Source: Bathymodiolus brooksi
Taxonomy: Eukaryota > Mollusca > Bivalvia > Mytilida > Modiolidae
Direction of reading: 5' to 3'
NCBI GenBank assembly: GCA_963680875.1
Contig: OY804575.1
Coordinates: 108,651,005 to 108,715,004 of the forward strand
DNA: 64,000 nt
Shown here: positions 26,676-52,805 of the stretch, piece by piece
Numbering within the stretch: the first letter of the stretch is position 1
How the letters are laid out: each line of letters opens with the position of its first letter
Notes under the pieces: generated by a model
Told to the model about the DNA's origin: nothing
Databases searched by the model: none
What the model saw: the letters and a program-made list of their open reading frames with translations, nothing else
Translations under genes and position numbers: made by a program

Positions 26676-27209
26676 TTATGTCATTTCTCTCAGTCTCAAA
26701 ATGTTAAAGCAACTCAGCAAGATATGCACCGGTAGTTTCGCTTGCCCCCACAAAACCAAGAAATTCCTCACGAAGAGTGACTTTAATTTACCACCAGTAC
26801 ATTCTACAAACCTTTCACACACGGAGACTTGTTCATGTGTTGAAACATCAGTTGTTTCATCACCAATTAAAACAAAGTCTTCAGAATCATTACACGTTCT
26901 ACCAATTGTTTCACGTACCATTTCGCGGCTAATTCCAATTATATCCTTCTGTATATCTGGAGATATGTATTTTATCCTTGAATTAGGTACTGAGTTATCC
27001 AGGTGAGACTGTAGTATTTCGTCGTGTTTGAACACATGACGCAAAATTGCCATGAAATTACTATTGCTATCCGTATGCCCCCCAATTGCAATATTTTGAC
27101 GAACACAAAGAATCAATACATCGATTATCTCCCATTTCTGGTAATAACCTCTTTGTGCTGAGATGATAGAATTGAAGTAACCTCTCTGATGTTTTGGACT
27201 TAACATCAA
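26676..27209 (-). pseudogene. hAT transposase fragment (DUF4371-like)
   Basis: A 177-codon frame with VRQNIAIGGHTDSNSNFMAI, then IQKDIIGISREMVRETI, then DFVLIGDETTDVSTHEQVSV and CERFVE. This order matches the DUF4371 part of ZMYM/hAT-type transposases (RQNI.LRGH.D...N......DE.TD.S..EQ.S...R.V). Both the N-terminal BED-finger region and the C-terminal dimerisation domain are missing. A second frame at 26032-26304 on the same strand may be a downstream piece of the same gene. Confidence 0.82.
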
Positions 27210-30009: not shown

Positions 30010-32320
30010 TCTTTATTTGCATAATAATACACCCATGTGGGTCAAGCAAATACAAATACAAACAAACAAAACATAGAAAACATAGAAAATTACAATTTGA
30101 TCATAATATAGGATACACAAAATAAATTCTATTAATTAATATTATATTTTTCACATGTCACACCTTTGACCGACAAGGACCTCATTTTTGCAATTCTGTA
30201 GATTGCTTTATAAAGTCTCCTACTTCTGCCAAAAGTTCAGAATTTGAATCTAACAAATTTTCATTTTATCTAATGGTATTTCTTCAATAAAGTCTGGTTT
30301 GTTTAATATTATTTTGTTAAATAAATTGTTTCTAAGAGAGTGGTTGGCTGTGCATTTTAAGAAAAAGTGGTATTCATCCCCTATTTCATTAAAATTACAA
30401 TTTTTACATTTTCTTTCTTCCCTTGTTATATTTTCATACCTCCCCGATTCAATCTCTAATCTGTGATCACTCACTCTAAATTTTGTAAATAATTGTCTCA
30501 TTTTGAAGTTAGAGAAGAATAATAAATAGTTTTCAAGTTTTAACTTTGATTTTATTTTACTGTAAATATACAGTTTGGAAGTTTCATTGAAAGATGAAAG
30601 TTTTTCTAATGTTTTTTTTACTATATGAGTCATTTATTACTTTCTTAATTTTTTTCTTCAGTAAATATTTTATAGATACCAAAGGTCTGGTGAAATTTTC
30701 AAAATCTGTGATTTCAAGATCTAATTCCTTACAAATATTTCCTATGAAACTATACCAAGTATAGATTCCATCAGAATCAACAGATTTACAGAGGGAAAAT
30801 GCCTCTTTAAGTAGAGGGTTTATTGGATCTGTTTGTAATCTACAAAAATATAGTATAGATTGTGTTTTGATATAGTCTGTTATAGGAAATCTTCCTAGTT
30901 CAGACTTGGCCGAAATATTACATGCAATCTTCTTTAAACCTAAAATATATTTACAAAATTTATTGTGTATCTTTTCATAACCAAATTTATCTTCAAGTGA
31001 CAATGTATCACAGACATAACCACTCTGTTCTGATCTGGATATTGCTCTACTGATAGAAAAATAGTCATCCATAAACCAAATTTCACTATTGTAGGTTAGA
31101 ATTGGTCTTATAAGTATATCAAATAATTTACAGGACAGATTTACTGGAATTGAGTTAAAATTCATATATCTATTTTTTAGTGAGAATAGAACTTTTAGTC
31201 CTTTCTTGCTCAGCTCTTGTGTAGCCTTTTTGAAACTTCCCTTGAAATCAATGACATTGCCAAGGAAATTGTATTCTTTGGTCTCAGTCAAAAGAACATT
31301 TTTGTAATAAAAGTTAGGGGAGGGTGATTGTGTGTTCTGAAAAATCATCACCTTTGTCTTTTTCGTATTAACGGTCAGTTGCCAGTCATAACAATATTTT
31401 TCTAGCTTATTTAAGGAGTTTTGAAGTCCTTCTGAAGTATTTGAAAGAATGACAAGATCATCGGCAAAGCTAAGGCTAGCCACTTTTGATTTTTCTAAAA
31501 CAAGGGGGGTACATGTACTGTCAAAAATATCATGCAAATCATTTGTAAAATAATTGAACAGGGTAGCTGATACTGCCCCCTTGTTTAACCCCTCTCTCTA
31601 AATTAAGAAAAGATGAAATTTTGTTTTGAATTTTTATAGCCGATTGACTACAATTATACATATTATTTATAATGTTTAAAAATTTTACACCAATCCCGTT
31701 GATCATTAACTTATATATAAGCCCATTATGCCATAGGGAGTCGAAAGCTTTGCGTAAGTCTACAAAGCAGGCATATATTTTTCCTTTATTTTTCTTCAAA
31801 TATTTTGAGATCAAAGATTTTAGAATAAAAAAAACTATCTGTGGTCCTATGGTTGGCTCTGAAACCAAATTGAGAATCAGAAAAGATTTTTTCATAATGT
31901 TGAATTAATCTGTCATTCAATACTGCACTGAACAATTTGGTCATACAGTTTTGCAAAGAAATATTTCTGTAATTATTTAAATCTGATTGATCTCCAGATT
32001 TAAGCACTGTATATGATTTTCTCCACTGTTTTGGATATTGTTCTAATATTAAATTGAAAAGCTTAGTTATAGCTTTACAAGTAATGCTACTACTAAATTT
32101 TATTATTTCATTGCCTATAAGATCAGGCCCTGCACTTTTGCCAATTTTGAGTTTATTAATACATATCTTTATTTATTTGACACAGAAGGGTTTGTCAGTT
32201 AATTCATTATAAACTAAAGTATTTTTTATAATTTTCAATATATTCTTTCACTCTTGAAGTGAAATCAACATTAATATTCTCAGGCTTCCCTTGAGACTGA
32301 AAATGTTGGGTAATGCAAAA
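30010..32320 (-). mobile_element. 5'-truncated non-LTR retrotransposon (LINE)
   Basis: The reverse-transcriptase remnant on - is followed by a 3' end with AATAAAG near 30010-30020. The element is inserted inside the 97-bp tandem array. No endonuclease domain is present, so the copy is 5'-truncated, which is usual for LINEs. The target duplication was not resolved because the flanks are repetitive. Confidence 0.85.
30250..32007 (-). pseudogene. Non-LTR reverse transcriptase, broken
   Basis: An RT remnant in three main frames. It shows NNYRNISLQNCMTKLFSAVL, FGFRANHRTTD, ACFVDLRKAFDSLWH (catalytic Asp), GVKQGGSIS, then SFADDLVILS at about 31457-31468 (the catalytic DD pair) and a long thumb/connection region. 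The end carries CKNCNFNEIGDEYHFFLKC, the C-terminal CCHC-like segment common in jockey/CR1-type LINEs. Frame breaks occur near 31540-31570 and 31790-31890, and again near 30590-30630. The clade is not certain from sequence alone. Confidence 0.88.
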
Positions 32321-33064: not shown

Positions 33065-33070
33065 TTCCTC
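33065..33070. repeat. 6-bp target-site duplication, left
   Basis: TTCCTC directly abuts the AGTAGT left terminus and is repeated at 41740-41745. The undisturbed repeat copy has TTCCTC once (43996-44001). Six base pairs is the duplication length known for Polintons. Confidence 0.95.
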
Positions 33071-33717
33071 AGTAGTATATGGGGACAGCTCAGTTATCAT
33101 TTGAGGGGGATCGATGGGGACCGTGACGTCACCGGAAGTTGCATCACAGGAAATGGCATCACAGGAACCGGAAGTCGTGAACCGGAAACGGGAAATGAAA
33201 GGGAGATCATTTCCCGCGCTTTTTTTACCCGTATTTCCCGCGCTTTTTTTTAACCCGTATTTCCCGCGTTTTTCCCGGAACTCCTCTAGATTCTAGGTAC
33301 GAACAATGGAATTGTGAATCCAACCTGTATCGGGTCACTATAGACCTATTACCCCCCTATGTTAAACCATTTTCCCTCCTGATTTGTGCAATCAGCCGTG
33401 ATTAATTGACTCAGTGGTATGTGTATGCAATATATGACTGCATTTTCTATGTTCTTTTGTTTGTTTGTTGTTTTCGTAAATAAAATGTTATTCATCATAC
33501 GGGGCTTTACATTATAACAAAACGCAAAGTACATTTTCTAAGCTTTATTGATAAGACGATGCACAAAAGTCTCGACTATGTCTGTGGCTTCTCTCGGATG
33601 TCTCAATGTTGTCGTAGCATCACCCATGGATTTTCCGGCACATCTGTGTATCAGATAAAATATACAGTGGTGTCCGCATACAGTGGAGCCTTCTTCTTGA
33701 ACTCTAATGGTGTTGTA
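33071..33717. repeat. Polinton terminal inverted repeat, left
   Basis: This repeats in inverted form at 41055-41739. The innermost 180 bp or so (33538-33717) is an antisense copy of the 3' end of the protease gene and differs from it at about four positions. The middle part holds GC-rich TTTCCCGCGC tandem words and the outer part CRE/ETS-like sites. The 5' AGT matches the AG start typical of Polintons. Confidence 0.95.
33124..33267 (+). promoter_or_regulatory. Cluster of CRE-, ETS- and E2F-like sites in the left TIR
   Basis: TGACGTCA (33124-33131) overlaps by one base ACCGGAAGT (33131-33139). A second ACCGGAAGT is at 33167-33175. TTTCCCGC occurs three times (33210-33217, 33234-33241, 33260-33267). 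These equal the consensus sites of CREB/ATF, ETS/GABP and E2F. The mirrored sites are in the right TIR (TGACGTCA 41658-41665; GCGGGAAA 41505-41512 and 41563-41570). A role as promoter/enhancer for the outermost genes is inferred. Confidence 0.55.
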
Positions 33718-33730
33718 TGGCTTTCATAAG

Positions 33731-33790
33731 GTAAGTCAATATATTAATTGGATTTTCGAATACCTTTACACGTGTATTATACTTGTACAG
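33731..33790 (+). other. Possible 60-bp intron before the CARD gene
   Basis: CATAAG is followed by the consensus donor GTAAGT at 33731. TTATACTTGTACAG ends at 33790, directly before the ATG of the CARD frame. Removing it would leave an untranslated leader derived from the left TIR. There is no transcript evidence, and a plain start at 33791 works without splicing. Confidence 0.4.
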
Positions 33791-34750
33791 ATGCAATCCG
33801 AACACAAATTTGCCCTAACCAAAAATTACGTGTTGTTGATGAATGAAACCCCGGTTGATGACATATTGGACGAACTTCGTCAACAACAGATAGTAAACGA
33901 GGAGCAGCGAGAATTCATTGCTCGACAACCCACCCAAAAAGGAAGGACTAGGGCTCTCTTAGAATTATTGCCCAGAAGGGGACCGAAGGCGTTTCACGCT
34001 TTCTGTTATGCTCTGTTGGCCCGTCACAAGAACGAGTTGGTATCAGTGCTAACCGACCCAGAAAAAGAAGACATGGCAGTGTGCTTCCCAGAACATTCCA
34101 TTTTTCATCTGGGTGGAGAAGTGTATCTGAGGGCAGAAAAAGAAATCACTCTTAAGCAAGGAGCAATAGAAATGTGTTTCCCCTTGATTCGTTGGTAAAT
34201 GTTTGAAACGTATTTGGAAGACGTGGACGAAGCGGTCGAACAAATAAGAAACAACAGATATTCTAGCGTGATAGAACATTTGGGTGGAAACGTGTACCTG
34301 ACTGTGGATAATAACGATAAAACTGACTGTTGTGTAGATATAAGATATCGCTGGTGCTCTCCCATCGACCATAAGATGTACCCCACACCACAGGGACTGT
34401 CTCTAACATTCGAACATTTCGATAAACTGAAGGACGTAGCCAAGGTGTTACGGATCTCATTCCCGATCTGAATACGACCCTTCCTTGTTACATGTCCCAC
34501 CAAAACGTATAGGGAGATATATATTGTGGTGAATGTAATCCCAACGGACCCGATTTCGACTAGGCGTATCTCTGGCACATTCCGACAAAAGTGACATTAG
34601 TATTTAGGGAACATATCTTAAAGGACAAAACGCAATATAATGGAAAGGACGCTAGAAATGTCACAGATTGTATTAGATTAACTGTACAAACAAAGGATCG
34701 GCAGTTCAATACTACTTTGTGTAGAGTGTCTACCGAACCATTAAACATTT
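33791..34750 (+). pseudogene. CARD domain fused to PC4-like domains, interrupted
   Basis: The first ~95 codons form a caspase-recruitment domain: VDDILDELRQQQIVNEEQRE, then LLELLPRRGPKAFHAFCYAL, matching CARD helices 2-5 (e.g. the ILP.RGP.AF signature of RAIDD/CRADD). A GGEVYL-type segment and a second PC4-like unit follow (HLGGNVYL...PTPQGLSLTFEHFDKL). A C-terminal part of unknown fold (34480-34750) includes CGECNPNGPDF. Breaks are an in-frame TAA at 34196-34198, a frameshift near 34452, and two further stops (about 34510 and 34561). I chose ATG 33791 because the CARD starts there; the frame is open back to 33707 inside the TIR. In cells CARDs assemble death and innate-immune signalling complexes; an element-borne CARD could interfere with them (inference). 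Confidence 0.82.
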
Positions 34751-35495
34751 AAATCTGGGATATAAACTGTAAATTGTGTAAATAATAGACTGTTTAAGAT
34801 TTTAAAAATGTTTACCTGTAAAGTTCTAGTTGAATATAAAGGAAAAAATAGTTAAATTGAGGTCAATATTTTCTTTTAAATTGATTTTCCTTAAAAAAAA
34901 TTCATTGTACAATGTTGTATATATTTGTATTTATAAAATAATTGAAATTGTATAACGGTGTTGGGTCTTTCATATGGATGATCAAAGATTGCATTTGAAT
35001 TTTAACGCCACTTTCAGTTATATCGTGGTCAAATATTTTATTTGGTGTTGAACGCCACTTTCAGTTATATCGTCGTCAAAGATTGTATTTGGTGTTGAAC
35101 GCTACTTTCAGTTATATCGTGGTCAAATATTTTACTTGGAATTTAACGCTACTTTCAGCTATATCGTGGTGGAGGAAACTACCGACCTAACGCAAATTCA
35201 CTGACAAACTTATTTCAAAGATGAGGTGTCTAGACGGACATTATTTGATCTTATGCATATCTTATCTTGAAAACTGATCATGCCTATTATACAAAGAAGA
35301 GTTTGAAAATACCAAAGGGGTAATCAAAATCGAAGGACAACAACATACACATACAACAAAAGACAGCACATTAAAGTACAGAGTATGAGCCCCAAAGTAC
35401 AGAGTATGAGCCCCACAGGGACAAAGGACAGCACATTAAAGTACAGAGTATGAGCCCCACAGGGACAACACAACGACCACGTCAAGTTTAAAACA
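34751..35495. repeat. Repeat-filled gap inside the Polinton
   Basis: The first 230 bp are AT-rich. At 34985-35215 there are four partial reversed SINE-B 3' ends in tandem (AACGCCACTTTCAGTTATAT, spaced about 55 bp) plus a GGAGGAAACTACCGACCT piece. At 35290-35480 a retroelement-like tail has three direct copies of AAGTACAGAGTATGAGCCCC. These are host repeats that accumulated inside the element. No gene is seen. Confidence 0.75.
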
Positions 35496-35786
35496 ATGGC
35501 GTGGTCAAAAGCCTATGAAAACAGAAAAAGGGAAAATAGATATCATTCAGACATGGACAACGATAGAGTACAGACGTATAGAAGGATTGCGTCTACCATG
35601 TTCAATGACGGTTTTATCAACATGGGTCGAGTTCTAGTGTTATTTGCCTTCACGAGTCAAATGGGGCAACAGTATCCCACCGATGCATGGAAGTTTTGGG
35701 ACATTTACCATGCCGTTCTTAAAGGGACAGAATACGAATACTTCAATCGATCGCTCATCCACCAATCAGAAAGCTCCATTTCATAA
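35496..35786 (+). pseudogene. Bcl-2-like protein fragment with BH1 motif
   Basis: A 96-codon frame contains MFNDGFINMGRVLVLFAF, which follows the Bcl-2 family BH1 pattern (LF.DG.NWGR...FF.F) with Met in place of the usual Trp. The preceding RVQTYRRIAST segment is where the helix before BH1 lies. The frame ends without the BH2 motif (W....GGW), and no BH3 or C-terminal membrane anchor is visible, so the gene is truncated at both ends or partly lost. Its last codons overlap the first CCAAT box of the next promoter. Bcl-2 homologues encoded by DNA viruses usually block mitochondrial apoptosis; that role is inference here. Repeats lie directly upstream. Confidence 0.6.
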
Positions 35787-35937
35787 ACAACTGACCAATC
35801 GAAACACAATGACTGTCCAATCAGATACGACGTTACGAAAGAAATCGACCAATCAGATACGTGGTTATTATTATTCATCTTGGATATAAGATGATGTAAC
35901 TAGAACTCTGCGTCATTTACTGGCTGGAACCCGCAAC
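35762..35937 (+). promoter_or_regulatory. CCAAT x4 and TATA promoter
   Basis: CCAAT boxes are at 35762-35766, 35795-35799, 35817-35821 and 35849-35853, all in the same orientation and mostly in the context CCAATCAGA. TATAA is at 35885-35889, and the next gene's ATG follows at 35938. Spacing and order match an NF-Y-driven TATA promoter. It would serve the tandem-PC4 gene and perhaps the packed genes after it. Confidence 0.7.
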
Positions 35938-36607
35938 ATGCCAAGTCAAAAAGGTAAAAGAGCCAAAGGCGTTCAGATGACAGAACAGCAGCCTAAAACC
36001 CCGCAGATAATTGATATTGTAGAGATGCCACCAACTGCAGATATCGTAGATACCAGCAACCCAAGATATCGTACAGAGTCCACCGACACAAAACGGCTCA
36101 CAGACGCCCGATACCGCACAAATAGAAGATATCTTGCAGATGGCAGCCCAGATGGTCGACATTCAGCCGCTCAAACGAGCCATGGGAGGAAACATATACT
36201 TGCAGTTAACAGAATGGAACGGATCCAAGAGAGTAGACTTACAATTCTGGAAGGATGGCACAGTCCCTACGAAAGAAGGAGTGAGCTTACATTTGGATCA
36301 ATGGAAAGCCCTGTGCAACATGTCGGACGTCATAGACGATTTGCTTACCAGAGTCATAGAAAAAGAACCAGTAGAGTGGCGATACCATATCGGAAACGAT
36401 GTTTTCGTGACGATCAAGGCACCGTTTCCCTTCGTTCACATCAGAAAGCACTTTATTCCCGCCGATGAATGGACCTACCGTCCTACCAAGAGAGGTGTGG
36501 CTTTACACATTGGAGAATGGAAAGAACTGAAACAGATCATCCCATTGTTGGAAGAAAGAGAGCCAGAACTGAGACAGTTAGTTCCCTTGTATAGAACAGA
36601 CTTGTAA
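35938..36607 (+). pseudogene. Tandem PC4-like (ssDNA-binding coactivator) protein, one frameshift
   Basis: The N-terminal part is Pro/Thr/Gln/Asp-rich with repeated DIV..PPT words. Two PC4-like units follow. The first is GGNIYLQLTEWNGSKRVDL... with PTKEGVSLHLDQWKAL; the second is GNDVFVTI... with RPTKRGVALHIGEWKELKQI. PC4/Sub1 domains end in the strand-turn-helix pattern P(T/G)(K)(K/R)G(I/V)SL...W..L, seen twice. The start at 35938 lies just after a TATA promoter. The N-terminal frame and the PC4 frame differ, so a one-base insertion (or two-base loss) lies at about 36046-36060. Cellular PC4 binds single-stranded DNA and aids pol II transcription. AATAAA overlaps the region just after the stop. 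Confidence 0.75.
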
Positions 36608-36665: not shown

Positions 36666-37666
36666 TTCAGTCAGTCGTATCCAAACCGTCAAAGAGGAAA
36701 GACGTGTGAAATGGAATTTTCGAGAAGAGATGTCATGTTGAGACATAAAAGAAATAAGCATGGAACAACTCATCCGTATCCACAGAGCAGTGATGCGTAT
36801 CAGCCGCTGAGAGAGGGATATACGCCGCCTCCGCCCCAGCAGCAGCCACCACCAGCAGCAGCAGCAGCCGCGGCGCTGAGAGAGGGATATACGCCACAGC
36901 CGCCGCCGCCGCCGCCGCCGCTGAGAGAGAAATATACGCCACAGCCGCCGCAGCCGCAGCCATACTCACAGAGTAATGAAGAAGAACCTTATTATATTTT
37001 GAAAACCAACAATCCTTACACATTTTACGTTCCAGACGGATACGATCCCGATCATTTCATGCCGTGGGTCCATCCATTTACCAGTGTAATCTCGGGACCA
37101 ACCGGAAGTGGAAAATCCGTCTTTGTCAGGAGATTCGTACACAATATCAAACACATGATGACCCCAATACCGGATCGCATCTTGTGGTGTTATGGAGAAT
37201 ACCAGACTTTATACGGAACCGTAGATGGAATGGACTTTCAACAAGGATTGCCGGACTTGGACACCCTCGACCCCAGAGAAAAACATTTAATAATCCTAGA
37301 CGATCTCATGGATGAAACGGATCAAAGAGTAGCTTCTCTGTTTACGAAGAAGAGTCACCACAGAAACATCAGTGTCATGTACATCGTTCAGAATCTGTTT
37401 CATCGAGGAAAACACCATAGAACCATAAGTCTCAATGCCCATTACATGGTCGTCTTCAAAAACCGAGAGACGTATCGCAGATCATGGCCTTGGCGCATCA
37501 AATGTATCCCCAAAGGACGAAATACTTGTTGGAAGCCTACACTGCAGCCACTGCTCAACCCCACGGCTATTTAGTCATCGATATGAAACAAGAGACACCG
37601 GACATCTTGAGACTAAGAGGTCATATCTTTCCTGGTGAGGAACAGAAAGCGTACGCCGATATTTAG
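36666..37666 (+). pseudogene. Genome-packaging ATPase (FtsK/HerA-A32 type), one frameshift
   Basis: The translocase that packs DNA into Polinton/adintovirus capsids. The frame starts with half of a zinc finger (TCEMEFSRRDVMLRHKRNKH; the second Cys and both His are present, the first Cys is not). Then come three proline-rich LREGYTP repeats with poly-Ala/poly-Pro (about 36805-36965) and the ATPase core: Walker A GPTGSGKS at 37095-37118 and Walker B HLIILDDLMDE near 37285-37320. The frame shifts at about 37461 by an apparent one-base loss, and the rest (MALAHQMYPQRTKYLLEAYT...) reads in another frame to 37666. The first ATG is 36711; the open frame begins at 36666. The protein is therefore truncated as it stands. 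Confidence 0.9.
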
Positions 37667-38580: not shown

Positions 38581-38656
38581 GATTTGATTGGTCACGAGGA
38601 CCGCTGGGTCGACTTTTAAAACGGAGGTTGAGACCACGAAGGGAGCAGTTGTAAAC

Positions 38657-39075
38657 ATGGAGTCGACCTATTATAATGTAGTTGCTCCCGCCAGTTATGG
38701 AGGACTGAGTAAATTTAAGCTGAAAGGTTATACGAAGAAAGAAGTCAGAGAATGGTTACAGTCTCAGGACACGTACACGTTGCATAAACCAACTAGACGA
38801 AGATTCACCAGGAGACGCGTTGTAGTCTATGGAATTGACCACCAGTGGCAGGCGGATTTAGTGGATCTGGCAAAATTGTCTTCTTACAACAAAGGATTCA
38901 AGTACTTGTTGACATGTATAGACGTGTTATCGCGATATATCATGGGTCGTTCCATTGAAAGACAAGACGGGGAAGACTTTGAAAGACGCGTTTCAGGTCA
39001 TTTTCAAATCGGGGTGGCGCCCGATACGTTTACAGACAGGCAAAGTGACACTTCACTGCAGAAAGAGAAAGGAGT
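38657..39075 (+). pseudogene. Retroviral-type integrase (rve), truncated
   Basis: Polintons insert with an RNase H-fold integrase. Here the N-terminal part has STYYNVVAPASYGGLSKFKL, LQSQDTYTLHKPTRRRF, then GIDHQWQADLVDL (first catalytic Asp) and KYLLTCIDVLSRY. At about 38934-38941 the frame shifts; the continuation in the other frame has WVVPLKDKTGKTL and IFKSGWRPIRLQT. The second catalytic Asp that should follow LQT is changed, and the Glu-bearing and C-terminal regions are absent. The sequence runs directly into the next gene. ATG 38657 was chosen because MESTYYNV is the usual start; an upstream in-frame ATG exists at 38588. Confidence 0.82.
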
Positions 39076-39085
39076 CGTATCTAGA

Positions 39086-39499
39086 ATGAAGCAAAGACAC
39101 AATCCAGACGCTAGAGCGTATCACGAGTACTACTTGAATCAGGTAGGAAGGGGATATCCCGTGTACGTTGGAACACGTTATCAGAGAGGACATGGACTAA
39201 GAAGTATTTTCGGAAGTCTGTTCAAATCGGCTGTTCCTTTATTAAAGATAGGAGCCAAAACTTTGGGTCGCGAAGCTTTGAAAACAGGTCTGAACCTAGC
39301 ATCGGACGTCATGGAAGGACAAAACGTCACACAAGCAGTCAAATCCAGATTGAAATCGACGGGACAAAACTTACTCCAGAAAGCTATGGACACCGTGGGA
39401 CCTCCCGGTGAACGATCTATAAAACGAGCTGCAAAGCGGAAAAAGCCCAGACGTCGTCAGACGAAGCTACGGAACACATCGAAAGACATCTTCGGTTAA
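39086..39499 (+). CDS. pVI/pX-like minor virion protein
   Basis: A 137-residue frame from ATG 39086. It has AYHEYYLNQVGRGYPVYVGT, YQRGHGLRSIFGSLFKSAVP, then an amphipathic Gly/Ala-rich stretch (LLKIGAKTLGREALKTG) and a strongly basic end (RAAKRKKPRRRQTKLR). This layout (YY..Q.G.G.PV..G..YQRGHGLGS.FG.LFR...P) is characteristic of the adenovirus-like minor protein encoded just before the capsid gene in Polintons/adintoviruses. The amphipathic helix suggests membrane lysis, and the basic tail suggests DNA or capsid contact. It is in frame with the integrase remnant by chance of the deletion. The stop lies 2 nt before the capsid ATG. Confidence 0.85.
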   Translation: MKQRHNPDARAYHEYYLNQVGRGYPVYVGTRYQRGHGLRSIFGSLFKSAVPLLKIGAKTLGREALKTGLNLASDVMEGQNVTQAVKSRLKSTGQNLLQKAMDTVGPPGERSIKRAAKRKKPRRRQTKLRNTSKDIFG

Positions 39500-39501
39500 A
39501 A

Positions 39502-40788
39502 ATGGCTCTAGTACACCAAAACTCTTGCGAATGTACGAAATCGGAATTGGATTTGTTTGGAGTACCACCGTCTCAGACCAGTGTGGAACATGGCTATTGG
39601 GAGCAAAAAGGGCTGACATCGACCCTAACGGACCAAGGTCCTTATGAATTTGCAGTCAGTGGAGCTGGAGATGTTTACATCGACCTGTTCAACACTTACT
39701 TGTTTGTGGAAGCACATATCGTGAATACCGATGGTTCTAACTTAAAACCCGATACGGACGTTGGACCCGTCGATTTGTGGATGCATTCACTGTTCAGTGA
39801 CGTCAGCGTTAGCCTAAACGAAAAATTAATTTCGCCACCGACCAGCATGTATCACTACAGGGCGTACATATAAACTCTTCTCAATTACGGACCAGCGGCT
39901 AAAGAATCTCAGTTGACGGGCGTGATGTGGTACAAGGACACTCCGGGACAGGAGGACAAGAGAACGACGGATAACAAGGGATTCACGGCAAGGAAAAAAT
40001 TGACCGCCCTAAGCAAGTCCGTACAAATGATGGGAAAACTACATTTGGGTCTGTTTTGTCAAGACAAATACTTACTCAACCACGTGAATCTGAAAATTAA
40101 ACTGAGAAGAAGTCGGGACGCTTTTGCTCTCGTGGCAGACGCGGCCAATTATAAAATCAAGATCAAGGAAATGGCTCTGTATGTGAGAAAGGTACAACTG
40201 AGTCCCGCCGTTAGAATGGGTCACGTGAAAGCATAGGAAAAGACCAGCTGTAAATACCCCGTCAGACGAGTAGAAGTAAAAGTGGACACGGTACTCACCA
40301 GCAACATGCATTACGTTCAGGACAATATATTTTTGGGACAGCTGCCAAAGAGACTCGTCATTGTCTGTGTAGACAGCGATGCACTGAACGGCGCTATTGG
40401 GAAAAATTCGTTCGATTTCAAACACTACAAGATCAATTTTATGGCACTCAACGTTGACGGACGACAGATTCCAACCAAACCGTTACAGCTCGACTTCGAA
40501 AACAATGGCTACATCCGAAGTTATATGGGACTCTACACCAGTACCGGAAAAATGGATCAAGACGAAGGAAATACCATTTCGAGAAAAGATTATGCCAAAG
40601 GATTTGATCTCACACCCGACATGTCTGAAGTTGGAGCCTTTCAGCTGATAAAACAAGGCAACTTGAGAGTGGAAATTCATTTCGCAGACGCCCTTACAGC
40701 TACCATCAACGTGATCATGTATGCAGAATTTGACAACGTCATTGAAATTGATAGAAACAGACAAGTCTTGTTTGACTACAGTGCTTAG
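39502..40788 (+). pseudogene. Major capsid protein (hexon-like double jelly roll), two in-frame stops
   Basis: A 428-codon frame, a normal length for this class. It starts MALVHQNSCECTKSELDLFG and includes IDLFNTYLFVEAHIV, DVSVSLNEKLISPPTSMYHY, LKIKLRRSRDAF and a conserved C-terminal part ([33 protein letters not shown]). These match the F54H12.2-like family that was shown to be the Polinton/adintovirus major capsid protein. Two point nonsense changes interrupt one continuous frame: TAA at 39871-39873 and TAG at 40234-40236. No frameshift is seen, so the breaks are few and probably recent. The stop TAG (40786-40788) abuts the protease ATG. Confidence 0.93.
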
Positions 40789-41234
40789 ATGAACACCTTA
40801 GAGATTGACCACGTACTGAAAACACACCCAAGTACCAGAAACGTTTTCAAAGGAGTATACGCCAGAAACAGACTACCCAGAAGTTTAAACGTACCTTCGG
40901 CCTTGATAGGGAACACGGACCCGGACGATCGACACACTGGGTAGCCCTATACATCGATGCCAACTCTAGAGGAGAATATTACGATCCCACAGGAAGACCA
41001 CCCTTTTTAAGGGCTTACGTGAACTTTATGAACAAACATTGTACGAGTTGGACTTACAACACCATTATAGTTCAAGAAGAAGGCTCCACTGTATGCGGAC
41101 ACCACTGTATATTTTATCTGATACACAGATGTGCCGGAAAATCCATGGGTGATGTTACGAGAACATTGAGACATCCGAGAGAAGCCACAGACATAGTCAA
41201 GACTTTTGTGCATCGTCTTATCAATAAAGCTTAG
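40789..41234 (+). pseudogene. Adenain-like cysteine protease (maturation protease), one frameshift
   Basis: The maturation protease of Polintons/adenovirus-like particles (C5/Ulp1 fold). The N-terminal frame from ATG 40789 has the usual MNTLEIDHVL start but ends at TAG 40942. The catalytic part is in another frame from about 40935: HWVALYIDA (His), YYDPTGRPP (Asp), IIVQEEGSTVCGHHCIFYL (Gln and nucleophile Cys), to TAG 41232-41234. A small deletion at about 40925-40935 explains the break. The last 180 bp or so lies within the right TIR and is therefore duplicated in reverse at the left end. AATAAA occurs at 41223-41228, just before the stop. Confidence 0.9.
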
Positions 41235-41739
41235 AAAATGTACTTGGCGTTTTGTTATAATGTAAAGCCCCGTATGATGAATAACATTTTATTTACGAAA
41301 ACAACAAACAAACAAAAGAACATAGAAAATGCAGTCATATATTGCATACACATACCACTGAGTCAATTAATCACGGCTGATTGCACAAATCAGGAGGGAA
41401 AAATGGTTTAACATAGGGGGTAATAGGTCTATAGTGACCCGATACAGGTTGGATTCACAATTCCATTGTTCGTACCTAGAATCTAGAGGAGTTCCGGGAA
41501 AAACGCGGGAAATACGGGTTAAAAAAAACAAAAAAAAGCGCGGGAATTACGGGTAAAAAAAAGCGGGAAATTATCTTCCTTTCATTTCCGGTTGTCGGTT
41601 CACGACTTCCGGTTCCATCATTTCCGGTGATGCCATTTCCGGTGATGCAACTTCCGGTGACGTCATATCCGGTGATGCAACTTCAAGTGTCCACACTGCT
41701 CCAGCTCAAATAGGACTTGAGCTGTGCCCATATACTACT
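41055..41739. repeat. Polinton terminal inverted repeat, right
   Basis: The inverse of 33071-33717. The inner end begins in the protease coding region (TACAACACCATTATAG) and the outer end is CCCATATACTACT. It is slightly longer than the left copy because of extra CCGGTGATGCAACTTC words and small insertions in the poly-A/GC-rich part. Confidence 0.95.
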
Positions 41740-41745
41740 TTCCTC
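41740..41745. repeat. 6-bp target-site duplication, right
   Basis: TTCCTC follows the ACT right terminus and is identical to 33065-33070. Confidence 0.95.
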
Positions 41746-42680: not shown

Positions 42681-43411
42681 TAAGTGTAGACATTGTAGAC
42701 ATTGTATTTTGACCATAAACTGGACGCAAGTTTTTATGCGCTGTGGGGTTCTGCCTAGGGTCGCGGAACCCCTTAAGATTTTTTTTATTGTACAGTATTT
42801 TATTCATTCTATATGTGGAGATCCTGGTCACAAGTGATCCTGGTAAACTTTTATTTCAGCTTTTTCTAAGCAAAAATATACTATAAAAATTTAACACAAT
42901 CATTCCATTGTTTGTTTATTTGCAGGCAGTAAACTATGGATATTCAGCATTAGTATGTGTTGCCAAGAGAGAAGCCGAGCTGATGCCAGGGTTACACTAA
43001 TGTCCTGAAAATTGACCTGAAATGTCCTGAAAAGTACATAAAGGCTTATATCTTTTTTATTATCCAATGGATTGAGTTCAAATTTGAAAATCTTAAATAC
43101 ATTAGCATATATTTAACGAATATTGAAAAAAACAATTAAAAAAAATATTTTTAGGTGGAAATAATTTGACCTGAAAATTGTCATGAAATGTCCTGAAAAT
43201 GTCCTGAAAAGTACATAAAGGCCCCCCCCCCCCCCCCCCCCTAATATTCGCAAAGCATATGTTATACAACGTTAATTAAGCAGTTCAACAAACAACTGTT
43301 TCATGAATGGTTAACTCGTGACCCGTAAGTCAAAATGAATAGTAATGATATTAGGAGTAAATTTGGGATATCATTCTAAAAAGCTCCACCCATTGATAAA
43401 TGATCAGTATA

Positions 43412-44537: not shown

Positions 44538-45600
44538 TCAACGATGTTCATCCCAAAACCAATCCCCTGAAACCCCTGAAGAACTCTGGTGTACCGATTT
44601 ACTGCATTTAACTCTACCTCGTTTTGCCTCACTGACATCCAACCATATTCTGGAACACATCAGGTTTACCACAATAACAAATAGATTCAATTTTCCTTGT
44701 ATATAATTTGATAACCTCAGTGTTTGATGATGTAGATTGTGGAAATGGGGAGAAATGGCCCTTCTCAAGACATGCAATTAGATGTGATCTCAGATATCTC
44801 TCAATGTAATGTGTGTGTTTTTTGTGTGTTGTATGTACCACTGTAACAAAACTCAACCAAGTTTGCCAAAGCATAAACCCCACAATCATAACCATTTGTC
44901 TGTTGTTGGACCTCGGGAAGTTTAATAAGCAAGTTCGTTTTCCCCTGTCCATAAATAGCCGACAGCTGAATCTCCAAAGATGGTGTAAGTGTGAAAGTTT
45001 TACTGTAACTGTCTAAAACATAAACTGTACCGTCCTTTTTATCCTGTAGCGATGTAACCCATTGTGATTTTCCTGTGTGTTGTATTTGTACTTGTCAATT
45101 ACCCATTTTCCACAATGTTTTAATATATCTTTGTCCATTTTTTGGAAATACGACACAATGGGTTTGGACCACTTACTCGTTAGCACTGTGTTCTTCTCTT
45201 TGTATTCTTCTTCACTATTGCACCTAAGTAATTCTTTAATGTTTGTCACATAAACTGCTATGTTGGTGTGGTCAGCTCCCATCTTTTGTAAATTGAACTT
45301 GAAGTCATTAATCAAATGGTTCCAGCACATAATAACGTCACAATTTGGAAAGTTCTTGTCAATAGCATTTACTAATCCAGTTTCTCGATCTGTCACAAAC
45401 GGAACAAATTTTCTATTTAATTTGGGAAAAACTGATGACACAAAGTCGAAAAATCTTGCCTGCACTTTTTCTTTCTTCCTTCCATGTATAAGAAAAGCTA
45501 CTGGCATAATTGGACTGTACTCAAATATGATGTTACGGAACACTAGAGGTGACACTTAAACATCTCCTAGTTTAAAAGTTGTATCATAAAAGGAGCAGTA
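44538..45600 (-). pseudogene. MULE transposase with Ulp1-like protease and PHD-like tail, broken
   Basis: On -, from about 45592: DTTFKLGDV (first catalytic Asp), a stop, then MSPLVFRNIIFEYSPIMPVA, FVTDRETGLVNAIDKNFPNC (second Asp) and MCWNHL, the MULE core order. After a frame change come WVTSLQDKKDGTVYVLDSYS, then QQQTNGYDCGVYALANLVEF, the Asp and Gln/Cys blocks of a C48 (Ulp1/SENP) peptidase; Gln replaces the usual His before WV. Further frames give CYCGKPDVFQNMVGC and GVSGDWFWDEHR, remnants of a PHD-type finger. The N-terminal part is replaced by a minisatellite. At least three frame breaks are present. Confidence 0.72.
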
Positions 45601-45825: not shown

Positions 45826-46322
45826 TTACTATCTATCAGTTAACAGTACTCACAACAAGCCATTAGCAGTCATATTCTTTTGTTCTGTTCATTTTTATGT
45901 TCTCTAGCTTTCTTTTAAGTTGTATTTTTATTGGGATACATTTTTCCAAACTTCTTTAGGTAAGTCTGTTTTCTTTTTCAACTTGTTCATTTCCAACATG
46001 CATTTCCAGTCGATCCAGGCCATATTATTTATAAAAATAAACATTAAAAAAAAAAATCTTTAAATATATGCTAATATCTATAACATTTCCACATTTGAAC
46101 TGAATCCATCGCATCATAACAAAGAGGACAATTTTCAGGTCAAATTATTTCCACCTAAAATTAACTTTTTTTATTTTTTTTTTAAATATTCGTTACATAT
46201 ATGCTAATGTATTTAAGATTTTCAAATTTGAACTCAATCCATTGGATAATAAAAAAAGATATAAGCCTTTATGTACTTTTCAGGACATTTCAGGTCAATT
46301 TTCAGGACATTTAGTGTAACCC

Positions 46323-48446: not shown

Positions 48447-51400
48447 TATTGCCATCACTTGGCGTCCGTCGTCTGTCGTCTGTAGTCTGTCGTCTGTAAA
48501 CTTTTCACATTTCAAGCTTCTTCTCCGAAACCACTTGGCCGATTGGAAACGAACTTAGCAGGAATGTTCCTTGGATGGTCCTCTACAAAGTTACTGTTTT
48601 TCGTTCCAGTCGGATATTCAATATGGCTGCCAGGGCCAATAATATGCTCTGATTGGCTGAAATTTCAAAGATCTTCTTCTCCGAAACTAATGAACTGACT
48701 GAACCCAAACTGTAAAGGAATGATCATTGGAATGTCCTTTACCAAGTTACTGTTTTTTATGCCGATCGGAAATCCAAGATGGCCGCCATCGCAGGACATA
48801 GATTAACATTGGACCCTATGGGAAAATGTTCAAATGCCTTCTTCTCAGAAACTACAAATATGATTAAAGCCAAACTGTACATGAATGTTCATTGGATGGT
48901 CCTCTACAATCTTAAGGTTTTTTGTTCCGATATGAAATTCAAAATGGCGGCTACGGCAGAACTTAGTTTAACATTGGACCCTATGGGGAAAATGTTTCAA
49001 AATGCTTCTTCTCTGAAACCACTTGGACAGTTGAAACCAAACTGCCCAGGAATGATCATTGGAAGGTCCTCTACAAATTTTTTGTTTTTTATGCCGGTCG
49101 GAAATCCAAGATGGCCGCCACCGCAGGACATAGATTAACATTGGACCCTATGGGAAAATATTCAAATGCCTTCTACTCAGAAACTACAAATATGATTAAA
49201 GCCAAACTGTACATGAATGTTCATTAGATGGTCCTCTACAAACTTTACGTTTTTTGTTCCGGTATGAAATTCAAAATGGCGGCTACGGCAGGACTTAGTT
49301 TAACATTGAACCCTATGGGAAAAATGTTTCAAAACGCTTCTTCTCTGAAACCACTTGGATAATTGAAACCAAACTGCCTAGGAATGATCATTGGAAGGTC
49401 CTCTAGAAATTTTATGTTTTTTATGCCAATCGGAAATCCAAGATGGCCGCCACCACAATACATAGATTAACATTGGACCCTATGGGAAAATGTTCAAATG
49501 CCTTCTTCTCAGAAACTACAAATATGATTAAAGCCAAACTGTACATGAATGTTCATTGGATGGTCCTCTACAATCTTAAGGTTTTTTGTTCCGATATGAA
49601 ATTCAAAATGGCGGCTACGGCAGAACTTAGTTTAACATTGGACCCTATGGGAAAAATGTTTCAAAATGCTTCTTCTCTGAAACCACTTGGACAGTTGAAA
49701 CCAAACTGCCCAGGAATGATCATTGGAAGGTCCTCTACAAATTTTCCGTTTTTTATGCCGGTCGGAAATCCAAGATGGCCGCCACCGCAGGACATAGATT
49801 AACATTGGACCCTATGGGAAAATATTCAAATGCCTTCTACTCAGAAACTACAAATATGATTAAAGCCAAACTGTACATGAATGTTCATTAGATGGTCCTC
49901 TACAAACTTTACGTTTTTTGTTCTGGTATGAAATTCAAAATGGCGGCTACGGCAGAACTTAGTTTAACATTGGACCCTATGGGAAAAATGTTTCAAAACG
50001 CTTCTTCTCTGAAACCAAACTGCCTAGGAATGATCATTGGAAGGTCCTCTACAAATTTTATGTTTTTTATGCCGATCGGAAATCCAAGATGGCCACCACC
50101 GCAATACATAGATTAACATTGGACCCTATGGGAAAATGTTCAAATGCCTTCTACTCAGAAACTACAATTATGATTAAAGCCAAACTGTACATGAATGTTC
50201 ATTAGATGGTCCTCTACAAACTTTACGTTTTTTGTTCTGGTATGAAATTCAAAATGGCGGCTACGGCAGGACTTAGTTTAACATTGGACCCTATGGGAAA
50301 AATGTTTCAAAACGCTTCTTCTCTGAAACCACTTGGATAATTGAAACCAAACTGCCCAGGAATGATCATTGGAAGGTCCTCTACAAAGTTTCTGTTTTTT
50401 TATGCCGATCGGAAATTCAAGATGGCCGCCACTGCAGGACATAGATTAACATTGGACCCTATGGGAAAATGTTCAAATGCCTTCTTCTCAGAAACTACAA
50501 ATATGATTAAAGCCAAACTATACATGAATGTTCATTGGATGATTCTCTACAAACAATACGTTTTTTGTTCCGATATGAAATTCAAAATGGCGGCTACGGC
50601 AGGACTTAGTTTAACATTGGACCCTATGGGAAAAATGTTTCAAAATGCTTCATCTCTGAAACCACTTGGACAGTTGAAACCAAACTGCCCAGGAATGATT
50701 ATTGGAAGGTCCTCTACAAAGTTTCTGTTTTTTATGCCGGTCGGAAATCCAAGATGGCCACCACCGCAATACATAGTTTAACATTGGACCCTATGGGAAA
50801 AATGTTTCAAAACGCTTCTTCTCTGAAACCACTTGGATAATTGAAACCAAACTGCCCAGGAATGATCATTGGAAGGTCCTCTACAAGGTGTGTGTTTTTT
50901 ATGCCGATCTGAAATCCAAGATGGCCACCACCGCAGGACATAGATTAACATTGGACCCTATGGGAAAATGTTCAAATGCCTTCTTCTCAGAAACTACAAA
51001 TATGATTAAAGCCAAACTGTACATGAATGTTCATTGGATGGTCCTCTACAAACTTTGCGTTTTTTGTTCCGATATAAAATTCAAAATGGCGGCTACGGCA
51101 GGACTTAGTTTAACATTGGACCCTATGGGAAAAATGTTTCAAAACGCTTCTTCTCTGAAACCACTTGGATAATTGAAACCAAACTGCCCAGGAATGATCA
51201 TTGGAAGGTCCTCTACAAGGTGTGTGTTTTTTATGCCGATCGGAAATCCAAGATGGCCACCACCGCAGGACATAGATTAACATTGGACCCTATGGGAAAA
51301 TGTTCAAATGCCTTCTTCTCAGAAACTACAAATATGATTAAAGCCAAACTGTACAAGAATGTTCATTGGATGGTCCTCTACAAACTTTACGTTTTTTGTT

Positions 51401-52805
51401 CCGATATGAAATTCAAAATGGCGGCTACGGCAGGACTTAGTTTAACATTGGACCCTATGGGGGAAATGTTTGAAAACGCTTCTTCTCTGAAACCACTAGA
51501 ACAGTTGAAACCAAACTGCCCAGGAATGATCATTGGAAGGTCCTCTACAAATTTTATGTTTTTTATGCCGATCGGAAATCCAAGATGGCCGCCACCACAA
51601 TACATAGATTAACATTGGATCCTATGGGAAAATGTTCAAATGCCTTCTTCTCAGAAACTACAAATATTATTAAAGCCAAACTGTACATGAATGTTCATTG
51701 GATGGTCCTCTACAAACGTTAGGTTTTTTGTTCCGATATGAAATTCAAAATGGCGGCTACGGCAGGACTTAGTTTAACATTGGACCCTATGGGAAAAATG
51801 TTTCAAAACGCTTCTTCTCTGAAACCACTTGGACAATTGAATCCAAACTGCCCAGGAATGATCATTGGAAGGTCCTCTACAAAGTTTCTGTTTTTTTATG
51901 CCGATCGAAAATTCAAGATGGCCACCACCGCAGGACATAGATTAACATTGGACCCTATGGGAAAATGTTCAAATGCCTTCTTCTCAGAAACTACAAATAT
52001 GATTAAAGCCAAACTGTCCATATGTGTGTACATTGGATGGTCCTCTACAAACTTTACGTTTTTTGTTCCGATATGAAATTCAAAATGGCGGCTACAGCAG
52101 GACTTAGTTTAACATTGGACCCTATGGGAAAAATGTTTCAAAACGCTTCTTCTCTGAAACCACTTGGATAATTGAAACCAAACTGCCCAGGAATGATCAT
52201 TGGAAGGTCCTCTACAAGGTGTGTGTTTTTTATGCCGATCGGAAATCCAAGATGGCCACCACCGCAGGACATAGATTAACATTGGACCCTATGGGAAAAT
52301 GTTCAAATGCCTTCTTCTCAGAAACTACAAATATGATTAAAGCCAAACTGTACATGAATGTTCATTGAATGGTCCTCTACAAAATATACGTTTTTTATTC
52401 TGATATGAAATTCAAAATGGCGGCTACGGCAGGACTTAGTTTAACATTGGACCCTATGGGAAAAATGTTTCAAAATGCTTCTTCTCTGAAACCACTTGGA
52501 CAGTTGAAACCAAACTGCCCAGGAATGATCATTGGAAGGTCCTGTTTTTTATGCCGATCGGAAATCCAAGATGGCTGCCACCACAGGTCATAGTATTAAC
52601 ACAGAACCATATGGGGAAAATACAGAAATATATTCTTCTCTGAAGCTATTGCACTGATTGAACCTAAACTGTGCATCAATCATTGGAAGGTCCTTTACAA
52701 ACTTTGTGTTTTTTATGTTGATCGTAATTCCAAGATGACGCAGGACATAGTTTTTACATAGGACCAATTGGTTTTTTTTATTACCAGGTGAACGATACAG
52801 GCTCT
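48447..52805 (+). repeat. 332-bp dimeric tandem array (two 166-bp monomers)
   Basis: The marker CATAGATTAACATTGGACCC starts at 48797, 49129, 49461, 49793, 50107, 50440, 50939, 51271, 51603, 51936 and 52270, i.e. steps of 332-334 with one 314 and one 499. Each 332-bp unit consists of an A monomer (CATAGATTAACATTGG...) and a diverged B monomer (ACTTAGTTTAACATTGG...), each about 166 bp. Both contain ACATTGGACCCTATGGG, a CTTCTTCTC.GA block and AAATGGCGGC/AGATGGCCGC. At 50773 a B monomer follows B directly (499 = 332 + 167). The 119-146-codon frames through it come from the repeat and are not genes. Confidence 0.95.

What the first reader, a model, noticed from the sequence alone, without database searches (positions are those of the whole stretch)
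33791..34750. Polinton-borne CARD domain fused to PC4-like domains
Seen: the first gene of a TIR/TSD-bounded Polinton encodes a clear CARD (VDDILDELRQQQIVNEEQRE ... LLPRRGPKAFHAFC), followed in the same frame by one partial and one fuller PC4-like segment. Known: CARDs mediate apoptosome and innate-immune assemblies (e.g. RAIDD, ASC, MAVS); PC4 domains bind ssDNA. I do not know of a described CARD-PC4 fusion. Inference: a decoy CARD tethered to nucleic acid could sense or blunt host signalling. Bivalves carry many CARD genes, so host capture is plausible.
Basis: partly seen in the sequence, partly recalled or inferred. Interest (0 to 1): 0.9.

Follow-up and report, generated by a model that had tools for sequence, protein, structure and literature searches.

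The report
Virus-like transposon carrying apoptosis-type CARD gene
A virus-like mobile element carries a cell-death signalling domain next to DNA-binding modules and a fragment of a Bcl-2-type cell-death regulator, which suggests that its lineage once interfered with the host cell's suicide response, although this copy is broken.

Summary

New here: a Bcl-2-type BH1 segment downstream (1.3e-6, just under cut-off), and a second gene with two PC4 units (3.2e-16). Grouper iridovirus also pairs a CARD with a Bcl-2-type protein, and its CARD lowers caspase-8/-9 activity (PMC4457926, passages).

Best reading: a host-type CARD captured by a Polinton/adintovirus-like element and used as an anti-apoptotic decoy. 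The mechanism is inferred. 8 of 8 viral-contig scans found no relative, and no animal genome could be searched. New variant of a known kind.

The parts
33065..33070 (.). left target-site duplication, TTCCTC
   Evidence: Read at both outer ends of the repeats.
33071..33717 (+). left terminal inverted repeat, beginning AGTAGTATATGGG
   Evidence: Local alignment with the reverse complement of 41055-41739. Inner part 444 aligned, 5 substitutions, 2 gaps; outer part 200 aligned, 18 substitutions, 7 gaps.
33731..33790 (+). possible 60-nt intron just before the CARD start codon (donor AAG|GTAAGT, acceptor TTGTACAG|ATG)
   Evidence: Consensus-like sites only; AGGTAAGT occurs twice on the + strand of the window. 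No transcript data: inference.
33791..34198 (+). CARD open frame up to and including its stop; CARD proper is 33815-34057
   Evidence: Pfam CARD 1.5e-13 over residues 9-89; best PDB sequences CED-3 1.2e-4, caspase-1 1.5e-4, RAIDD 1.6e-4; structure lists.
34055..34195 (+). truncated first PC4-like unit in the CARD frame (weak)
   Evidence: 8.1 bits, 2 of 20,000 shuffles higher; DNA 34106-34130 matches 34277-34301 at 21 of 25. Against: nothing in Pfam and barely above an unrelated piece.
34196..34198 (+). in-frame stop codon that cuts the CARD frame inside the first PC4-like unit
   Evidence: Sequence.
34199..34471 (+). fuller PC4 unit in the same frame as the CARD (core about 34262-34468)
34982..35170 (.). 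four tandem copies of a 47-bp unit between the CARD/PC4 region and the Bcl-2-type frame
   Evidence: Tandem Repeats Finder.
35496..35786 (+). Bcl-2-family fragment with the BH1 region (35541-35675); the Pfam match covers profile positions 23-66 of 100 only
   Evidence: Pfam Bcl-2 1.3e-6, 29.3 bits against cut-off 31.4; BAX 2.7e-4 in PDB sequences.
36134..36607 (+). second PC4 gene with two PC4 units (36158-36358 and 36359-36574)
   Evidence: Pfam PC4 3.2e-16, 59 bits, 2 stretches; 1pcf 0.024 by sequence.
36711..37574 (+). packaging-ATPase-like gene; similar-looking sequence continues in another frame (37421-37666), so probably frame-broken
   Evidence: Pfam Pox_A32 8.9e-6 (25.8, cut-off 22.8) and Adeno_IVa2 6.4e-5 (22.4, cut-off 21); overlap of frames.
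38588..39499 (+). integrase-like fragment (match 38840-38983) that runs into unrelated sequence
   Evidence: Pfam rve 1.1e-5, 26.0 bits, below cut-off 32.6, profile 6-52 of 102; PHROG transposase 8.3e-4.
39442..41234 (+). frames in the position of capsid and protease genes; identity by eye only
   Evidence: No Pfam, PHROG or PDB support.
41055..41739 (-). right terminal inverted repeat
41740..41745 (.). right target-site duplication, TTCCTC

Best explanation
A Polinton/adintovirus-like element acquired a caspase-type CARD and placed it in front of a PC4-type gene of its own, in an early position next to the terminal repeat. In intact relatives the CARD would bind the CARDs of host initiator caspases or their adaptors and stop productive caspase assembly (a decoy), while a Bcl-2-type protein encoded downstream would act on the mitochondrial step. 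The PC4 units would bind single-stranded DNA, which protein-primed strand-displacement replication exposes, and might hold the CARD at replicating DNA. Shown here: CARD, PC4 and BH1 sequences lie together inside one TIR/TSD-bounded element, and the CARD frame runs into PC4-like sequence. Inferred: capture from a host gene, decoy action, DNA tethering, early expression. This copy is broken and probably inactive.
For: CARD Pfam 1.5e-13 and BH1 1.3e-6. Best CARD matches are caspases and a caspase adaptor, and no caspase protease domain was found in the + strand frames of the element given to Pfam (19 references). Top four viral structure matches are viral CARD proteins. Grouper iridovirus carries both a CARD-only gene and a Bcl gene, and its CARD reduced caspase-8/-9 activity by 36% and 34% (PMC4457926, passages). 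The frog virus 3 vCARD knock-out triggered more apoptosis (PMC4974522, passages). Adintoviruses of mammals are said to carry anti-apoptotic homologues (PMC11071296, passages).
Against: One damaged copy and no relatives: 8 of 8 viral-contig scans gave none. The stop lies inside the first PC4-like unit, and that unit is weak. The BH1 segment is partial and below Pfam's cut-off. A CARD can also promote caspase or NF-kB signalling. No selection test and no expression data.
Confidence: 0.5

Rival explanations
1. Two neighbouring genes, not a fusion: a CARD-only decoy gene that ends shortly after the CARD, followed by an independent PC4 gene. The short similarity between them is chance or a fragment left by recombination.
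For: The CARD frame ends at 34198. The first PC4-like piece has no Pfam match and scores 7.4 against 7.2 for an unrelated piece of the element. Known viral CARDs in iridoviruses are CARD-only (PMC4457926, passages).
Against: 8.1 bits with 2 of 20,000 shuffles higher, DNA identity 21 of 25 with 1 of 1,000 shuffles reaching it, no break in frame between the CARD and the HLGGEVYL motif, and a model helix at the start of the next frame piece (residues 2-17) where a first unit's helix would be expected.
Confidence: 0.3
2. A host CARD fragment picked up by a dead or non-autonomous element as passenger DNA, with no function for the element.
For: No polymerase match in the + strand frames scanned and too little room for one. 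The integrase match is partial and the ATPase appears frame-broken.
Against: The CARD core is uninterrupted over 81 residues, lies beside a second apoptosis-type domain in the same orientation, and continues into PC4-like sequence related to the element's own PC4 gene. Codon third-position GC of the CARD (0.46) is near that of the other frames (0.48-0.54), though this is weak.
Confidence: 0.15
3. A sensor or signalling switch rather than a decoy: PC4 units bind single-stranded DNA and bring CARDs together, so that viral DNA triggers CARD assembly, for example to activate NF-kB-like survival signalling.
For: Architecture: CARD plus PC4-like units. From recall, herpesvirus E10, which appears as a structural match, is a CARD protein that activates NF-kB.
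Against: No functional data. DNA-contact residues of PC4 are only partly kept in the units seen. The Bcl-2-type neighbour fits simple death suppression equally well.
Confidence: 0.1

Closest known systems
Iridovirus CARD-only proteins (grouper iridovirus GIV-CARD, frog virus 3 vCARD)
   Same: A DNA-virus-type element with a CARD resembling caspase CARDs. GIV also carries a Bcl gene (PMC4457926, passages). Structural matches include cod iridovirus and lymphocystis disease virus 3 CARDs.
   Different: Those are CARD-only. Here the CARD frame runs on into PC4-like sequence, and the carrier is a small integrating element. No sequence relatedness to them was tested.
Equid herpesvirus E10 (viral CARD protein)
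   Same: Viral CARD with further sequence behind it; ranks 3 and 4 among viral structures.
   Different: Large herpesvirus genome; no PC4 unit is known to me in E10 (recall).
Polintons/Mavericks and adintoviruses
   Same: TIRs, 6-bp duplication, integrase-like and packaging-ATPase-like stretches. Adintoviruses of mammals are said to carry anti-apoptotic homologues (PMC11071296, passages).
   Different: 8.7 kb and without a polymerase match. CARD and PC4 genes did not turn up in the paper searches made (and the part listed).
PC4/Sub1 family, including the phage T5 PC4 homologue
   Different: Units are tandem in one chain (36134-36607), and one follows a CARD frame. Key residues are only partly kept (numbering from PMC4350104, passages).
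Human CARD-only decoys (ICEBERG, COP, INCA)
   Different: Host genes, no PC4, not on a mobile element.

Membership tests
CARD (death-fold superfamily) | sequence match to the CARD profile above the curated cut-off | tested here: met
   51 bits against 23.9, E 1.5e-13.
CARD (death-fold superfamily) | helical-bundle fold of the CARD kind | tested here: met
viral CARD decoy | CARD without a caspase or NTPase effector domain, carried by a virus-like element | tested here: met
   Inside the TIR/TSD bounds. No caspase domain among 19 + strand references scanned; the only NTPase-type matches are in the ATPase gene.
viral CARD decoy | inhibits caspase activation | not testable with these tools
   Needs binding and cell assays.
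PC4/Sub1 | profile match above cut-off (second unit, 34199-34468) | tested here: not met
   19.1 bits against 25.
PC4/Sub1 | profile match above cut-off (double unit, 36134-36604) | tested here: met
   59 bits against 25.
PC4/Sub1 | four to five strand sheet followed by one helix | tested here: met
PC4/Sub1 | DNA-contact residues (F77, R86, W89, R100, K101 of human PC4) | tested here: inconclusive
   First unit of the double gene: W at 89, W for F77, K for R100, E for K101, gap at R86. Second unit behind the CARD, aligned by eye: R86 and W89 equivalents kept, R100 and K101 not.
Bcl-2 family | profile match above cut-off with BH1 and BH2 | tested here: not met
   29.3 bits against 31.4, profile positions 23-66 of 100, BH1 part only. 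By eye no BH2-like sequence follows in any + frame to 35960.
Polinton/Maverick | TIRs and 6-bp target duplication | tested here: met
Polinton/Maverick | retrovirus-like integrase and packaging ATPase | tested here: inconclusive
   ATPase-type profiles above cut-off (Pox_A32, Adeno_IVa2); rve match partial and below cut-off.
Polinton/Maverick | protein-primed DNA polymerase B | tested here: not met
   No polymerase match in 19 + strand references that cover most of the interior. Filed therefore as a deleted, Polinton-like element.
Polinton/Maverick | jelly-roll capsid proteins and adenovirus-type protease | tested here: inconclusive

The most novel reading that the evidence does not exclude
An animal integrating DNA virus lineage encodes a CARD tethered to tandem single-stranded-DNA-binding PC4 units, together with a Bcl-2-type protein. 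It would be a DNA-anchored death-fold decoy that gathers host caspase-activating CARDs on replicating viral DNA and silences them there, a two-step block of mitochondrial apoptosis in an element of transposon size.
Probability: 0.2. Interest if true: 0.8.

Novelty: new variant of a known kind. Interest (0 to 1): 0.5.

Why it matters
If intact relatives exist, Polintons that look like transposons would carry a death-suppression kit like that of large DNA viruses. That supports the view that they replicate as infectious viruses in animals, since an element that never leaves the germ line has little need to stop cell suicide. It would also give the first death-fold domain joined to a PC4-type DNA-binding unit known to me, and make a simple prediction testable: bind host CARDs, bind single-stranded DNA, or both.

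Tried and rejected
Pattern matches were 1, 9, 3, 10, 173, 2, 1 and 4; none was confirmed as a relative. This says little, because IMG/VR holds few animal elements as far as I know (recall) and single-sequence queries reach close relatives only.

Rejected: chance CARD (E 1.5e-13). Rejected: CARD lying outside the element (bounds). Not rejected: CARD-only gene followed by a separate PC4 gene. A third PC4-like unit after 34471 was considered because of short PC4-like strings in two frames; DNA comparison gave no support (S3 against S1, S2, A and B gave 131, 218, 303 and 329 of 1,000 shuffles) and Pfam found nothing in 34591-34749, so it is not claimed. Length of the CARD frame alone is poor evidence: 5 of 500 shuffles of 33718-35900 hold a stop-free run of at least 165 codons, observed 163. 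DNA comparison of the first PC4-like piece with the two units of the double gene gave 450 and 167 of 1,000 shuffles, which does not support it. Protease by sequence: the only PDB match is an unrelated peptidase at 0.04. Integrase frame in PDB sequences: 0 matches.

Paper searches: 10 of 10 used. 'polinton' with 'CARD domain' 0 papers; 'adintovirus' with 'Bcl-2' 0; 'polinton' with 'caspase' 4, none by its title about Polinton genes; 'polinton' with 'PC4' as whole words 0, which misses the plural; a looser search held 166 papers of which 20 were listed, none of them with 'polinton'. Starrett et al. 2021 on adintoviruses is not held and is recalled only, so Bcl-2 or CARD genes described there would have been missed.

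Full report
What was claimed.

The element. The left repeat runs 33071-33717 and the right 41055-41739, beginning and ending with AGTAGTATATGGG-type termini. The six bases outside both ends are TTCCTC, so the element is 8,669 bp with a 6-bp duplication. The inner repeat parts differ at 5 of 444 aligned positions plus 2 gaps, the outer parts at 18 of 200 plus 7 gaps. Its GC is 0.43 against 0.353 for the window. On the + strand it holds an ATPase-like frame (Pox_A32 8.9e-6 and Adeno_IVa2 6.4e-5, both above cut-off) and a partial integrase-like match (rve 1.1e-5, below cut-off; PHROG transposase 8.3e-4). The 19 + strand references given to Pfam show no polymerase, and 8.7 kb leaves little room for one. 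Frames at 39442-41231 sit where capsid and protease genes would be expected and look like them by eye, but no profile or PDB sequence supports that. I therefore call it a deleted, broken, Polinton-like element.

The frame 35496-35783 matches the Bcl-2 family over its BH1 part (1.3e-6, 29.3 bits, cut-off 31.4), with BAX the best solved sequence (2.7e-4). It is a fragment; by eye no BH2-like sequence follows in the + frames to 35960. CARD and Bcl-2-type sequences in one element point to interference with apoptosis.

How it most likely works. Iridoviruses give the closest working model. Grouper iridovirus has a CARD-only gene and a Bcl gene; the CARD inhibited apoptosis in HeLa cells and lowered caspase-8 and -9 activities by 36% and 34% (PMC4457926, passages). 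Frog virus 3 without its vCARD triggered more apoptosis (PMC4974522, passages). Adintoviruses of mammals are said to carry anti-apoptotic homologues (PMC11071296, passages). By analogy, I infer that the ancestor of this element used its CARD as a decoy for caspase or adaptor CARDs. The PC4 part may have placed it at single-stranded replicating DNA; that step is the least supported. The copy here is broken and probably does nothing now.

Limits. One copy, no relative found, host not identified, no animal genome searchable, literature searched only in the open library with the gaps told under Tried and rejected.

Verdict. New variant of a known kind (viral CARD decoy), interest 0.5.

Noticed in passing
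33731-33790: Consensus-like splice donor and acceptor 60 nt apart, the acceptor ending directly at the CARD start codon; a first exon would lie in the terminal repeat.
   Followed up: partly
34982-35170: Four tandem copies of a 47-bp unit between the CARD/PC4 region and the Bcl-2-type frame; possible regulatory or replication element, function unknown.
   Followed up: no
35938-36468 and 36050-36607: Two overlapping frames share a repetitive DIV-rich leader before the double PC4 units, suggesting that this gene is frame-broken near its start.
   Followed up: no
30250-32172, - strand: Reverse-transcriptase pieces (Pfam RVT_1 3.7e-12 and 1.5e-8), a broken retroelement just outside the element.
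   Followed up: partly
44801-45555, - strand: MULE transposase-like (1.1e-4, below cut-off) and Ulp1-type protease-like (3.3e-5) pieces side by side, flanked by near-perfect inverted repeats at 42999-43182 and 46127-46311.
   Followed up: partly
26676-27209, - strand: DUF4371 match (1.5e-9), as found in hAT-like transposase genes (recall).
   Followed up: no
48716-52593, + strand: Long array of repeated frames with the string LTLDPMG; satellite-like, no Pfam match in the one frame tested (51109-51609).
   Followed up: no
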